Origin: Trichocoleus sp.
GTDB taxonomy: Bacteria; Cyanobacteriota; Cyanobacteriia; Elainellales; Elainellaceae
Reading direction: 5' to 3'
Assembly (NCBI GenBank): GCA_036702865.1
Contig: DATNQD010000027.1
Location: 1-64,000 of the forward strand
Length of the DNA stretch: 64,000 nt
The notes beneath the pieces were generated by a model. The model saw only the letters and a program-made list of their open reading frames with translations, did not search any database and was not told the origin of the DNA. A program made the position numbers and the translations under genes. Positions 2,524 to 56,896 of this stretch are shown here, piece after piece. The stretch's first letter is position 1, and each line of letters starts with the position of its first letter.

Positions 2524-2595
2524 TCCTCAGTAGCTCAGTGGTAGAGCGGTCGGCTGTTAACCGATTGGTCGCTGGTTCGAATCCAGCCTGGGGAG
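2524..2595 (+). tRNA. tRNA-Asn (anticodon GUU)
   Basis: A 72-base cloverleaf. The acceptor stem TCCTCAG pairs with CTGGGGA (one G-U pair), the D-arm contains AGCTCAGTGGTAGAGC, the anticodon loop is CTGTTAA with GUU, and the T-arm is GCTGG-TTCGAAT-CCAGC. The discriminator base is G, and CCA is not encoded (TTA follows). No intron is seen. Confidence 0.97.
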
Positions 2596-7323: not shown

Positions 7324-7359
7324 TTTTATACCAACTTTTATACCAACTCTTATACCAAC
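7324..7359. repeat. Three tandem 12-base units at the 3' end of the DAHP synthase gene
   Basis: On the plus strand the unit TTTTATACCAAC occurs at 7324-7335 and 7336-7347, and TCTTATACCAAC at 7348-7359. The last copy contains the DAHP synthase stop codon and its last two codons. Each unit supplies an in-frame TAA on the minus strand. Confidence 0.85.
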
Positions 7360-8210
7360 GAGAATTGAGGAATCGTAGGGGTTCCAGTAGGAATGGTTCG
7401 ACCAACCGCAGCGGCGATCGGCTCCAGACTTCGTACTAATGCAGTCATTTCTTCCAGGGAAAGCGTTTGTCGCGCATCTGAAACCGACTTTTCCGGCTCC
7501 GGGTGACATTCAACCATAATGCCATCTGCACCACAGGCAACTGCAGCTCTTGCCAGGTCTGCTACCAGTTCTCGCTTACCCGTCGCATGACTTGGATCAA
7601 CCACGATCGGCAGATGGGTGAGTTGTTTAATTGCCACCACTGCGCCCAGGTCGAGGATATTGCGCGTGTAGGAGTCGAAACTGCGAATGCCGCGCTCACA
7701 GAGAATCACATTTGAATTGCCGTGACTGAGGACGTATTCGGCTGCCATCACGAATTCTTCGATCGTTGCTGCGAGTCCTCGCTTCAGTAGAATGGGCTTG
7801 TTTACCTGACCCAGTGCCTTCAGCAAATCAAAGTTTTGCATATTGCGGCTACCCACTTGCAGCACATCGGCATAAGCCGCGATTTCCTCAATTTGCGAGA
7901 TTGCCATGACCTCTGTAATGACGGGCAAACCGTAGCGATCGCGCACCGCAGCCAACATTTTGAGCCCCTCTACGCCTAACCCCTGGAAGTCATAGGGAGA
8001 AGTCCGAGGTTTATAAACGCCACCGCGAAGTGCCTGTACCGGAGCTGCTGCTAAACAACTGGCGACTGCTTCCATTTGAGGCTGAGTTTCCACGGAGCAA
8101 GGTCCACCGACAATGAGTAAATCTTTTCCGCCAACGGTCACTGAATTGGGGAGATGAACGATCGTTTTGTGGTCGGGGCTAGTTTTGAGGGTCAGTTTTG
8201 CTTTCTGCAT
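7350..8210 (-). CDS. aroF: 3-deoxy-7-phosphoheptulonate (DAHP) synthase, type I-beta
   Basis: Condenses phosphoenolpyruvate and erythrose 4-phosphate to DAHP, the first step to chorismate and the aromatic amino acids. The 286-residue protein shows IVGGPCSVETQPQ (the N-terminal cysteine metal ligand), GGVYKPRTSPYDFQGLG, QVGSRNMQNFDLL, ILLKRGLAATIEE, IVVDPSHATGKRE and GIMVECHPEPEKS, the ordered motifs of the microbial KDPG-type AroF/KdsA superfamily. It lacks a fused chorismate mutase or a long regulatory extension, so feedback control by an attached domain is not evident. Upstream lies an aromatic-rich leader peptide with attenuator hairpins, which is likely how the gene is controlled. The start ATG at 8208-8210 has AGGA about 8-11 bases before it. 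Confidence 0.95.
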   Translation of the reverse strand: MQKAKLTLKTSPDHKTIVHLPNSVTVGGKDLLIVGGPCSVETQPQMEAVASCLAAAPVQALRGGVYKPRTSPYDFQGLGVEGLKMLAAVRDRYGLPVITEVMAISQIEEIAAYADVLQVGSRNMQNFDLLKALGQVNKPILLKRGLAATIEEFVMAAEYVLSHGNSNVILCERGIRSFDSYTRNILDLGAVVAIKQLTHLPIVVDPSHATGKRELVADLARAAVACGADGIMVECHPEPEKSVSDARQTLSLEEMTALVRSLEPIAAAVGRTIPTGTPTIPQFSLV

Positions 8211-8278: not shown

Positions 8279-8309
8279 AAAAAACCCGGAACCTTAGAAG
8301 GACTCCGGG
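8279..8309 (-). terminator. Intrinsic terminator between leader peptide and aroF (attenuator hairpin)
   Basis: On the minus strand CCCGGA pairs with TCCGGG (plus coordinates 8304-8309 and 8285-8290). The stem continues with a 3-bp AGG/CCT inner stem after a small internal loop, and six U follow (8284-8279). It ends about 68 bases before the aroF ATG, so a polymerase stopping here would leave aroF unexpressed. It is one arm of the attenuator described at 8279-8499. Confidence 0.85.
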
Positions 8310-8334
8310 CTGGCGATTCGCTGGCATGACGAGT

Positions 8335-8397
8335 TCACCCGGAGTATGTCCTGGTCCAAAAATAGAATCCAAAAAACCAACTAGAGGTGAGGGTCAT
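8335..8397 (-). CDS. Aromatic-rich leader peptide of aroF
   Basis: A 20-codon reading frame, ATG at 8395-8397 and TGA at 8335-8337, encoding MTLTSSWFFGFYFWTRTYSG. Eight of 20 residues are aromatic (two Trp, four Phe, two Tyr), seven of them within codons 7-14 as WFFGFYFW. It precedes a DAHP synthase gene, the entry point to exactly those amino acids, and its stop codon lies inside one arm of the attenuator. That combination is the classic design of ribosome-mediated attenuation. No strong ribosome site precedes the ATG, which is common in cyanobacteria. Translation itself is inference. Confidence 0.75.
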   Translation of the reverse strand: MTLTSSWFFGFYFWTRTYSG

Positions 8398-8424
8398 CGT
8401 CAATACCGTAATAAGGATTTAGAT

Positions 8425-8456
8425 AAAACAAAAACCGCAGAGTTTGTTCTGCGGTT
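8425..8456 (-). terminator. Second U-tailed hairpin, upstream of the aroF leader peptide
   Basis: The minus strand reads AACCGCAGA-ACAAAC-TCTGCGGTT, a 9-bp perfect stem (8456-8448 / 8441-8433) running straight into TTTTTGTTTT. It lies between arm 1 and the leader peptide. Its 5' side overlaps GGTGAACC (8460-8453), which can also pair with GGTTCACC in arm 1 (8499-8492), so it too could be switched. It might instead end a short independent transcript. Confidence 0.7.
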
Positions 8457-8499
8457 CACCAAGAGTTCCATGTCAAACTGGACTCACTCCGGGTGAACC

Positions 8500-8881
8500 T
8501 CCATAAACCAATACCAAAAAAAGACTGTTGGGCGAGACATAAGACTCTGCAAATGATGCGGATTAAATTTAAGTTACTGCAACCGTAACAAGAATGTCAA
8601 AACTTCGTCAAGCCCTCTAAAGAAGAATTTGGTTAGAATCTGACACGGGAACTGCTGTTTTGATGACAATTTACTCCAACAGCTTATGATGGGCGATCGA
8701 ACAGGATACTTGATATTTAACGGTAGACTAGGGGGCTATGAACGGCTGATCATTCATTTACTAGCTCGGTCTCAAATCAACCCCAGCTATCTGTCTTAAA
8801 GCAGCCCTCTTAAAGCAGCCCTGAACGGAAGCTGCCGATAGCTCAAGCTCCAAATCTTTTAAATCTCAGCAATGCCTCAGC
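8500..8881. other. Divergent intergenic region between the aroF leader and the gliding-type ABC operon
   Basis: No gene is seen. A perfect 14-base tandem duplication (CTTAAAGCAGCCCT at 8795-8808 and 8809-8822) lies 60-87 bases before the ABC ATPase start. On the minus strand TTGACA at 8601-8596 is a possible -35 box for the aroF leader transcript, with GTAACT 17 bases on as a poor -10. No riboswitch was recognised. Confidence 0.5.
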
Positions 8882-55339: not shown

Positions 55340-56896
55340 CTACTCTAAAGAGCCGATTGCCTCTAACATGCCTCGCGCTTTGTTGAGGGTTTCTTCGTAC
55401 TCGCGTTCTGGTTCAGAGTCTGCGACTAGCCCTGCGCCTGCCTGTACGGTGACAGTATGCTTGCCATCTGCTCGACTTCGGACAACCATCGTGCGAATGG
55501 CGATCGCTGTGTTCAGTTGTCCTTCAAAGTCGTAATAGCCATAGGAACCAGAATAAACCCCTCGACGGCAGGGTTCCAGGTTATGAATAATCTCCATTGC
55601 CCGAATTTTGGGTGCACCGCTCACCGTTCCGGCGGGGAAGCAGGCTTTGAGGAGTTCCCAGGCAGTTTTGCCCGGAGCCAGCTTGCCAACTACGTTGCTA
55701 ACAATATGCATCACGTGCGAGTAGCGTTCAATCACCATTAGCTCATCAACGCTGACCGTACCATTCGCACAGACACGTCCCAAATCGTTGCGCCCCAGGT
55801 CTACGAGCATCACGTGTTCAGCAATTTCTTTTGGGTCTTGCAGCAGGTCATTGGCATAAGCAAGATCTGCTTGCGGGGTTTTTCCGCGAGGGCGGGTTCC
55901 GGCGATCGGTCGGACTGTTGCAACAATCGGCGCATCTTTTCCTAAGGATCGTTCTGCCTTGACCATGACTTCTGGACTGGAACCAATAATTTGCCAGTCG
56001 CGGAAGTGAAAATATGCCATATAGGGGGAAGGATTGACCAAGCGCAGCGATCGATACAAAGCGAATGGGTCGCCGCTATATTCAGCCTCCAATCGCTGAG
56101 AAATCACGACTTGAAAGATGTCTCCAGCCCGGATATGTTCCTTGGCTCGTTCCACGCTTTGGCAAAACTGCTCTTTCGTAAAATTGCTGCTGTACTGAAA
56201 CTCTGGGCTCTGTCTTCTGCTCTCTGCTGCCTGCCCTCGCTGCTGAGGCGAAGTCCATTTCAAGATCGTGTCTTGTCTTGCCAGGGGCAACTGTAGCTTT
56301 TCAACCATTTGATTGACCTGAGCGCAAGCCTGCTGATATGCCTGCTGCAGGTCTGTATCAGGATCACGTAGATCAGCATAAGCGACCGCCCAAATCTTAC
56401 GGCGCACCTGGTCAAAAATTAACAGGTGGTCAATTTGCATCCATAGTCCATCAGGCAAATCGGTTTCTTGAGCCGAATAGATAGGCACACGTGGCTCGAT
56501 CCAATTGATCAACTCATAGCCCCAGAAGCCAAAAAGCCCGCCAATTCCGGGAGGAAGCTGAGGTAGGGTGACTGGATGGTAAGGCTTCAGACAGAGGCTG
56601 AGTGCCGTAAAGGGGTCGCCCTCAAACGTGCGGGTTGCACCATTGCGATAGGTTTGCACCGTTCGATCGCCTTTTGCTTCCAGTGTCCAAACCGGATCGC
56701 AGCCGAGCAAGCTATAGCGTCCAATTCTTTCGCCCCCCTCGATCGATTCCAGCAAAAAGCTGTAGGGCTGTCCGGCACAGACCTTATACCAGGCGGAGAC
56801 GGGCGTATCCAGGTCTGCAACCCATTCCTGATAGACAGGTACAAAATTGCCTTGCTGAGCGAGTGCTGTGAATTGCTCGAAGTCAGGAAAAGTCAT
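55340..56896 (-). CDS. trpE: Anthranilate synthase component I
   Basis: Makes anthranilate from chorismate, with glutamine-derived ammonia from TrpG. The 518-residue protein shows the tryptophan feedback-site motif SFLLESIEGGERIGRYSLLG, the N-lobe segment GIGGLFGFWGYELINWIEP, GDIFQVVISQRLEAEYSGDP, TVRPIAGTRPRGKTPQADL, EHVMLVDLGRNDLGRVC, TVSGAPKIRAMEIIHNLEPC and VQAGAGLVADSEPEREYEE. These are all the conserved chorismate-binding blocks. Feedback inhibition by Trp is thus expected. Its upstream region shows no leader peptide like that of aroF. TrpG is not adjacent. Confidence 0.96.
   Translation of the reverse strand: MTFPDFEQFTALAQQGNFVPVYQEWVADLDTPVSAWYKVCAGQPYSFLLESIEGGERIGRYSLLGCDPVWTLEAKGDRTVQTYRNGATRTFEGDPFTALSLCLKPYHPVTLPQLPPGIGGLFGFWGYELINWIEPRVPIYSAQETDLPDGLWMQIDHLLIFDQVRRKIWAVAYADLRDPDTDLQQAYQQACAQVNQMVEKLQLPLARQDTILKWTSPQQRGQAAESRRQSPEFQYSSNFTKEQFCQSVERAKEHIRAGDIFQVVISQRLEAEYSGDPFALYRSLRLVNPSPYMAYFHFRDWQIIGSSPEVMVKAERSLGKDAPIVATVRPIAGTRPRGKTPQADLAYANDLLQDPKEIAEHVMLVDLGRNDLGRVCANGTVSVDELMVIERYSHVMHIVSNVVGKLAPGKTAWELLKACFPAGTVSGAPKIRAMEIIHNLEPCRRGVYSGSYGYYDFEGQLNTAIAIRTMVVRSRADGKHTVTVQAGAGLVADSEPEREYEETLNKARGMLEAIGSLE

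What the first reader, a model, noticed from the sequence alone, without database searches (positions are those of the whole stretch)
8279..8499. Aromatic-rich leader peptide and four-arm attenuator in front of DAHP synthase
A 20-codon reading frame with eight aromatic residues (WFFGFYFW core, then Y18) sits between a promoter-proximal arm and a U-tailed terminator upstream of aroF. Arms 1:2 pair over 13 bases exactly, 2:3 over 8 bases, and 3:4 form the terminator. Arm 2 contains the leader stop codon. The layout satisfies the logic of the E. coli trp and phe attenuators, but all three aromatic amino acids appear in one leader, as would suit control of the first common step. Whether such cyanobacterial leaders are already described I cannot say.
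Basis: partly seen in the sequence, partly recalled or inferred. Interest (0 to 1): 0.9.

Follow-up and report, generated by a model that had tools for sequence, protein, structure and literature searches.

The report
Twin aromatic attenuators before DAHP synthase
In many cyanobacteria the gene for the first enzyme of aromatic amino-acid synthesis is preceded by two RNA switches in a row, each with a tiny gene packed with phenylalanine, tyrosine and tryptophan codons, which should let the gene be read only when charged tRNAs for these amino acids run short.

Summary
The leader at 8397-8335 (MTLTSSWFFGFYFWTRTYSG) and its terminator exist. So two complete attenuators stand in series before a catalytic-core-only DAHP synthase (8210-7350). 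Of 165 non-identical upstream regions of orthologues (cyanobacteria plus two Obscuribacter-type genomes), about 97% have element A and 96% have B. Both leaders carry Phe, Tyr and Trp codons in fixed register with the stop codon. All four helices covary. A promoter motif lies upstream of A only. Covariance models find one A and one B per genome, only before this gene; trpE-like, pheA and other DAHPS genes lack them. Best explanation: tandem ribosome-mediated attenuators, both sensing all three aromatic tRNAs. I found no report of leader-peptide attenuation in cyanobacteria in the searched library. Nearest precedents: C. glutamicum aroR-aroF (one leader) and Salmonella mgtCBR (tandem, different signals). 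New variant of a known kind; function is inferred, not measured.

The parts
8582..8611 (-). Promoter-like element: TTGACG (8611-8606), 18-nt spacer ending in TGT, TACGGT (8587-8582); extended -10 type; start expected near 8575
   Evidence: Motif TTGAC-N16/17-TGnTAYnnT upstream of leader A in 37 of 158 regions, 0.0 expected in dinucleotide shuffles, absent between A and B and between B and the gene. Activity not measured.
8484..8540 (-). Leader A ORF: MSRPTVFFWYWFMEVHPE*, 18 codons, 6 aromatic codons in a row
   Evidence: Sequence; conserved upstream of orthologues with fixed register to the stop
8492..8499 (-).
   Evidence: Pairs with 8460-8453; covaries in 71 sequences
8453..8460 (-). Arm 3 of attenuator A, GGTGAACC; shared by antiterminator and terminator
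   Evidence: antiterminator hairpin 8501-8448 folds at -25.1 kcal/mol, z -4.4
8425..8457 (-). Terminator A: GAACCGCAGA-ACAAAC-TCTGCGGTTT followed by U tract
   Evidence: Terminator scan; fold -15.2 kcal/mol; 97.7% of cells paired, 6 pairs with changes on both sides
8335..8397 (-).
   Evidence: conserved
8338..8345 (-). Arm 2 of attenuator B, ACTCCGGG, running into the stop codon 8337-8335
   Evidence: Pairs with 8309-8302; covaries in 70 sequences
8302..8309 (-). Arm 3 of attenuator B, CCCGGAGT; shared by antiterminator and terminator
   Evidence: antiterminator 8347-8301 folds at -18.2 kcal/mol, z -3.0
8279..8311 (-). Terminator B: AGCCCGGAGTCC-TTCTAAG-GTTCCGGGTT followed by T6
7350..8210 (-). 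Regulated gene: 286-aa type I-beta DAHP synthase, catalytic core without an N-terminal regulatory domain
   Evidence: NF006421/TIGR01361/PF00793; aligns to residues 79 onward of the 338-aa chain 1rzm and to nearly all of the 262-aa chain 1zco

Best explanation
Two ribosome-mediated transcription attenuators act in series between one promoter (about 8611-8582) and the DAHP synthase gene. In each, a ribosome translates a short leader whose 6-8 aromatic codons lie just upstream of arm 2. When Phe-, Tyr- and Trp-tRNAs are charged, the ribosome runs on to the stop codon, covers arm 2, arms 3:4 form the terminator and transcription stops. When any of the three charged tRNAs is scarce, the ribosome stalls in the aromatic block, arm 2 stays free and pairs with arm 3, the terminator cannot form and polymerase reads on. 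Polymerase must pass both gates, so read-through probabilities multiply; because each leader carries all three kinds of codon, shortage of any one opens both. This probably supplies end-product control to a DAHP synthase isoform that lacks an allosteric domain. Shown here: the ORFs, their conservation, the mutually exclusive covarying helices, the fixed geometry, promoter motif placement, and uniqueness to this gene. Inferred: translation of the leaders, stalling, termination and read-through in vivo, the multiplicative logic and the physiological reason.
For: Tandem leaders in nearly all orthologues. Aromatic codons at positions -12 to -7 (A) and -14 to -7 (B, except -11) from the stop, 74-98% aromatic although TTT/TTC/TAT/TAC/TGG interchange; F, Y and W all present in 152/155 and 149/155 leaders. 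Observed aromatic fractions exceed column-independent expectation, e.g. 0.94 against 0.56. Covariation: A2:A3 94.0% of cells paired, 7 pairs with changes on both sides; A3:A4 97.7%, 6; B2:B3 82.6%, 5; B3:B4 91.1%, 5; covariation score reached by 0 of 500 shuffles each, slid controls far lower. Own arms pair better than arms swapped between species for A2:A3 and B2:B3. With an assumed ribosome footprint, structure before the terminator is -14.6 and -18.2 kcal/mol with the ribosome at the last aromatic codon but -3.0 and -1.6 with it at the stop. Promoter motif only upstream of A. Covariance models: one strong A and/or B per genome, always at this gene, and none at E < 0.1 in the genomes without the orthologue. 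No comparable leaders at trpE-like, prephenate dehydratase or long DAHPS genes of the same genomes.
Against: No RNA or protein data. Leader A shows no Shine-Dalgarno enrichment (5 of 157 against 8.75 in control windows); leader B only modest (24 of 151 against 6.5). The promoter motif in strict form is found in only about a quarter of regions. Some lineages keep one element only: B missing in Pseudanabaenaceae, L220 and L071; A missing in L026, L046, L054. Tight transcription-translation coupling in cyanobacteria is assumed. Shuffle tests of covariation do not correct for shared ancestry. The two B helices do not exceed shuffles in the number of doubly changed pairs or pair types. Geometry uses an assumed footprint of 12 nt.
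Confidence: 0.9

Rival explanations
1. One four-arm attenuator: 8499-8487 is arm 1, pairs with arm 2 of leader B and so sets the no-translation state to termination.
For: In the window the pairing is perfect over 13 bases and dominates the fold of the whole region (-36.8 kcal/mol).
Against: Only 1 of 151 regions has it; others have 3-7 bp, like mismatched species. The same bases are the conserved, covarying arm 2 of attenuator A. A terminator at 8457-8432 lies between them.
Confidence: 0.03
2. Tandem attenuators plus a long-range link special to this lineage: in RNAs where terminator A formed but leaked, the freed arm 2A captures arm 2B and forces termination at B (a second check).
For: 13-bp match in the window, 7 bp or long imperfect duplexes in a few others (L142 -28.3, L021 -26.2, L034 -25.2 kcal/mol).
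Against: No excess over arms swapped between species across the set. Both arms share the CACCCGG/CCGGGTG-like make-up that their own helices require, so matches can arise by chance.
Confidence: 0.1
3. The conserved peptides act in trans (as peTrpL does in Sinorhizobium) or are functional small proteins, and the terminators are secondary.
For: Peptides are conserved over great distances; leader peptides with functions in trans are known (PMC7298713).
Against: Conservation is confined to the aromatic block and to codons forced by arm 2; N-termini and lengths vary (16-22 aa as a rule) and aromatic residues interchange freely. The elements never occur away from this gene in the genomes searched.
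Confidence: 0.04
4. A translation-independent RNA element (T-box, riboswitch or protein-bound leader) with fortuitous ORFs.
For: Terminator and antiterminator hairpins as in riboswitches.
Against: No Rfam family matches here. Spacers between arms are variable, with no aptamer-like core. The conserved stretch upstream of the arms is an aromatic codon block with synonymous and F/Y/W interchange.
Confidence: 0.02

Closest known systems
E. coli trpL-trpEDCBA and pheL-pheA attenuators
   Same: Leader peptide rich in the regulated amino acid's codons, alternative antiterminator and terminator, control of an aromatic biosynthetic gene
   Different: There one leader per operon, mainly one amino acid, four arms with a 1:2 hairpin; here two leaders in series, all three aromatic amino acids in each, three arms each and no conserved 1:2 hairpin; a different phylum and the first common enzyme
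Corynebacterium glutamicum aroR-aroF attenuator (Neshat et al. 2014, as cited in PMC11802643; PMC4046766)
   Same: Aromatic leader peptide in front of a DAHP synthase gene
   Different: Single leader with Phe-Tyr-Phe, reported to respond to Phe but not Tyr; no Trp codons mentioned; an actinobacterium. No homology tested here
Salmonella mgtCBR tandem attenuators mgtM/mgtP (PMC3641672)
   Same: Two short ORFs, each with its own attenuator, in one leader mRNA
   Different: The two sense different signals (ATP and proline); [quoted passage not shown] Here both have the same three-amino-acid specificity and the gene is biosynthetic
Histidine leader peptides in Firmicutes (Naville and Gautheret 2010, PMC2965389)
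   Same: Leader-peptide attenuation outside Proteobacteria and Actinobacteria found by comparative genomics
   Different: Firmicutes, hisS/hisZ, single; [quoted passage not shown]

Membership tests
Ribosome-mediated (leader-peptide) transcription attenuator | Short ORF with clustered codons for the amino acid(s) made by the regulated pathway | tested here: met
   Both leaders, F/Y/W clusters; nearly all orthologues
Ribosome-mediated (leader-peptide) transcription attenuator | Intrinsic terminator between leader ORF and structural gene | tested here: met
   Two terminators
Ribosome-mediated (leader-peptide) transcription attenuator | Antiterminator that excludes the terminator and overlaps the end of the leader ORF | tested here: met
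   Arm 3 shared; arm 2 spans the last codons and stop; covariation
Ribosome-mediated (leader-peptide) transcription attenuator | Promoter upstream of the leader ORF(s) | tested here: inconclusive
   Conserved promoter-like motif upstream of A in 37/158, none elsewhere; no start-site data
Ribosome-mediated (leader-peptide) transcription attenuator | Leader is translated; read-through depends on charged cognate tRNA | not testable with these tools
   Needs reporter, starvation, ribosome profiling or term-seq experiments
Classical four-arm trp-type attenuator | Conserved 1:2 hairpin that forces termination without translation | tested here: not met
   The only 1:2 candidate (A2 x B2) is confined to this genome
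[quoted passage not shown]
   By codon content only: both leaders hold Phe, Tyr and Trp codons in 152/155 and 149/155 cases
T-box or other Rfam cis-regulatory family | Match to a curated covariance model | tested here: not met
   Only a tRNA in the window reaches a gathering score

The most novel reading that the evidence does not exclude
A cyanobacterial, two-stage attenuator in which two leader peptides with the same three-amino-acid specificity gate one gene in series, giving low leak and steep derepression on shortage of any aromatic amino acid, and taking over end-product control for a DAHP synthase without an allosteric domain. It would be the first leader-peptide attenuation described in cyanobacteria and the first series of two attenuators with the same specificity.
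Probability: 0.65. Interest if true: 0.85.

Novelty: new variant of a known kind. Interest (0 to 1): 0.78.

Why it matters
Attenuation by leader peptides was worked out in enterobacteria and was long held to be confined to Proteobacteria and Actinobacteria. A conserved pair of such switches across filamentous and other cyanobacteria indicates that the mechanism works, and is old, in a phylum where to my knowledge none is recorded. The arrangement poses a testable design question: why two gates with the same key? It also offers a ready control point for engineering aromatic compounds in cyanobacteria.

Tried and rejected
Cross pairing A2:B3 and B2:A3: no excess over swapped arms. Rfam: nothing. 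Shine-Dalgarno at leader A: none. Simple sigma-70 consensus scan of the window: only a weak opposite-strand site, and the generic best-promoter score over all regions barely exceeded shuffles; the extended -10 motif was found only by comparing close relatives. Aromatic leaders at trpE-like, prephenate dehydratase and longer DAHPS genes: none. Laying the whole genome for scanning: not available. ORF picking by pattern misassigned a few loci (L197, L215, L053, L058), corrected with the covariance models and by eye.

Full report
What was checked. The window's minus strand from 9300 to 7000 was read. It is followed by GGTGAACC (8460-8453), complementary to GGTTCACC at its own 3' end, and by a terminator at 8457-8432. 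The region is therefore two attenuators in series: A (8540-8425) and B (8397-8279).

Conservation. Orthologues of the 286-aa DAHP synthase were collected from whole genomes, from named genome records and by taking upstream stretches. In 165 non-identical upstream regions, automatic picking found leader A in 159 and leader B in 156. After covariance-model checks and leaving out two truncated contigs, element A is lacking in about four regions (L026, L046, L054, and L211 with a weak match) and element B in about six (L069, L212, L215, L216, from one family that includes a named Pseudanabaenaceae record, plus L220 and L071). A typical pair is MFSNNSYFYFWFRVVHRG + MSYLTNWFYGFYFWPSLSSG (L029). Named carriers include Nostoc, Calothrix, Scytonema, Drouetiella, Pegethrix, Hydrococcus, Symploca, Laspinema and two Obscuribacter/Melainabacteria genomes (L068 both, L071 A only).

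Coding evidence. Counted from the stop, codons -12 to -7 of A and -14 to -7 of B (except -11) are aromatic in 74-98% of leaders, with TTT, TTC, TAT, TAC and TGG interchanging; Phe, Tyr and Trp all occur in 152/155 A and 149/155 B leaders. Shuffling each nucleotide column independently lowers the aromatic fraction in every column, most where TGG alternates with TTT or TAC (for instance 0.99 to 0.69 at A -9 and 0.94 to 0.56 at B -7). So whole aromatic codons are kept, not single bases.

RNA evidence. Alignments A1 (71 diverse sequences) and A2 (70) were tested for four named helices. Antiterminator A2:A3: 94.0% of cells paired, 7 of 11 pairs with changes on both sides. Terminator A3:A4: 97.7%, 6 of 10. 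Antiterminator B2:B3: 82.6%, 5 of 10. Terminator B3:B4: 91.1%, 5 of 10. Covariation scores were not reached by any of 500 shuffles and fell sharply on sliding by 1-3 columns. For the two B helices, the number of doubly changed pairs and of pair types does not exceed shuffles; the cell counts and scores do. Arm 3 is common to both helices in each attenuator, so they exclude each other. Own-species arms pair better than swapped arms: A2:A3 -20.7 against -18.0, B2:B3 -22.7 against -20.1 kcal/mol.

Geometry. With an assumed leading edge 12 nt beyond the first base of the A-site codon, a ribosome at the last aromatic codon leaves a pre-terminator structure of -14.6 (A) and -18.2 (B) kcal/mol on average; at the stop codon -3.0 and -1.6. 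That is the order required by attenuation: stall means read-through, completion means termination. In the window itself a stall at the last A codon (F -7) frees only part of arm 2A, and at W -8 or earlier most or all of it.

Promoter. Close relatives share TTGACt-N15/16-TGnTAYnnT upstream of leader A. In its strict form it is in 37 of 158 regions, against 0.0 in shuffles, mostly 25-50 nt before the leader; it never occurs between A and B or between B and the gene. In the window it reads TTGACG (8611-8606) and TGT-TACGGT (8587-8582).

Specificity. Covariance models R1 (A) and R2 (B), run on 30 related genomes, gave 21 genomes with a strong A hit and 20 with a strong B hit, one each and before this gene; G392, of the one-element family, has A only. 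No genome without the orthologue has a hit better than E 0.4. The trpE-like, prephenate dehydratase and longer DAHPS genes of nine such genomes have no comparable leader with terminator.

The regulated enzyme. P0001 is a type I-beta DAHP synthase. It aligns with nearly all of the 262-aa chain 1zco and with residues 79 onward of the 338-aa chain 1rzm, so it lacks the N-terminal domain which, from general knowledge, carries allosteric control in the Thermotoga enzyme. The same genome holds a second, 374-aa DAHP synthase without leaders. That expression control replaces missing feedback inhibition is inference.

Known systems. Leader-peptide attenuation of a DAHP synthase is known in C. glutamicum (aroR-aroF, single leader, Phe-Tyr-Phe; PMC11802643, PMC4046766). 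Tandem leader-ORF attenuators are known in Salmonella mgtCBR, with different signals (PMC3641672). In 2010 no leader-peptide system was held to exist outside Proteobacteria and Actinobacteria apart from new Firmicutes candidates (PMC2965389). Ten searches of the open-licence full-text library found no report in cyanobacteria; subscription journals are largely not covered, so novelty is provisional.

Verdict. The finding is genuine and larger than reported: a conserved pair of aromatic-codon attenuators in series. The case for the mechanism, by analogy and comparative evidence, is strong (0.9); the double-gate logic and the physiological purpose are inferred.

Noticed in passing
L081, L082, L086, L094, L095, L099, L101, L102, L105, L111 (upstream of DAHP synthase): Acidobacteria carry a single aromatic leader before DAHP synthase (for example MTRGFASSYRFWFRYFTG, LMRIVSFNSFRFWFWYGT), followed by a conserved terminator of the form AACCCACTC..GAGTGGGTTTT. 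It looks like a separate one-stage attenuator; R2 matches L094 weakly (20.6 bits).
   Followed up: partly
L085, L087, L091: Photobacterium DAHP synthase genes have a leader with CAFFSWWW or CALFSWWW and a terminator AAGCCCGC..GCGGGCTTTTTT; Enterovibrio (L078, L080) shows the terminator.
   Followed up: partly
L012 (-323 to -281), L031 (-312 to -270): In these two, leader A stops right after the aromatic block (MFTANSYFYFWYP*, MFIHNFYLYFWYK*), so arm 2A lies just 3' of the stop; a natural test of how far the ribosome must run to cover it.
   Followed up: no
L068, L071, L053, L058, L197, L220, L069: Model R2 (element B) also matches element A of several loci weakly (15-28 bits), which may mean that A and B arose by tandem duplication.
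   Followed up: no
window 55379-56176 (-): A chorismate-binding enzyme gene (trpE/pabB type) lies in the same window without any such leader.
   Followed up: partly
window 2524-2595 (+): A tRNA gene, the only Rfam match in the window.
   Followed up: no
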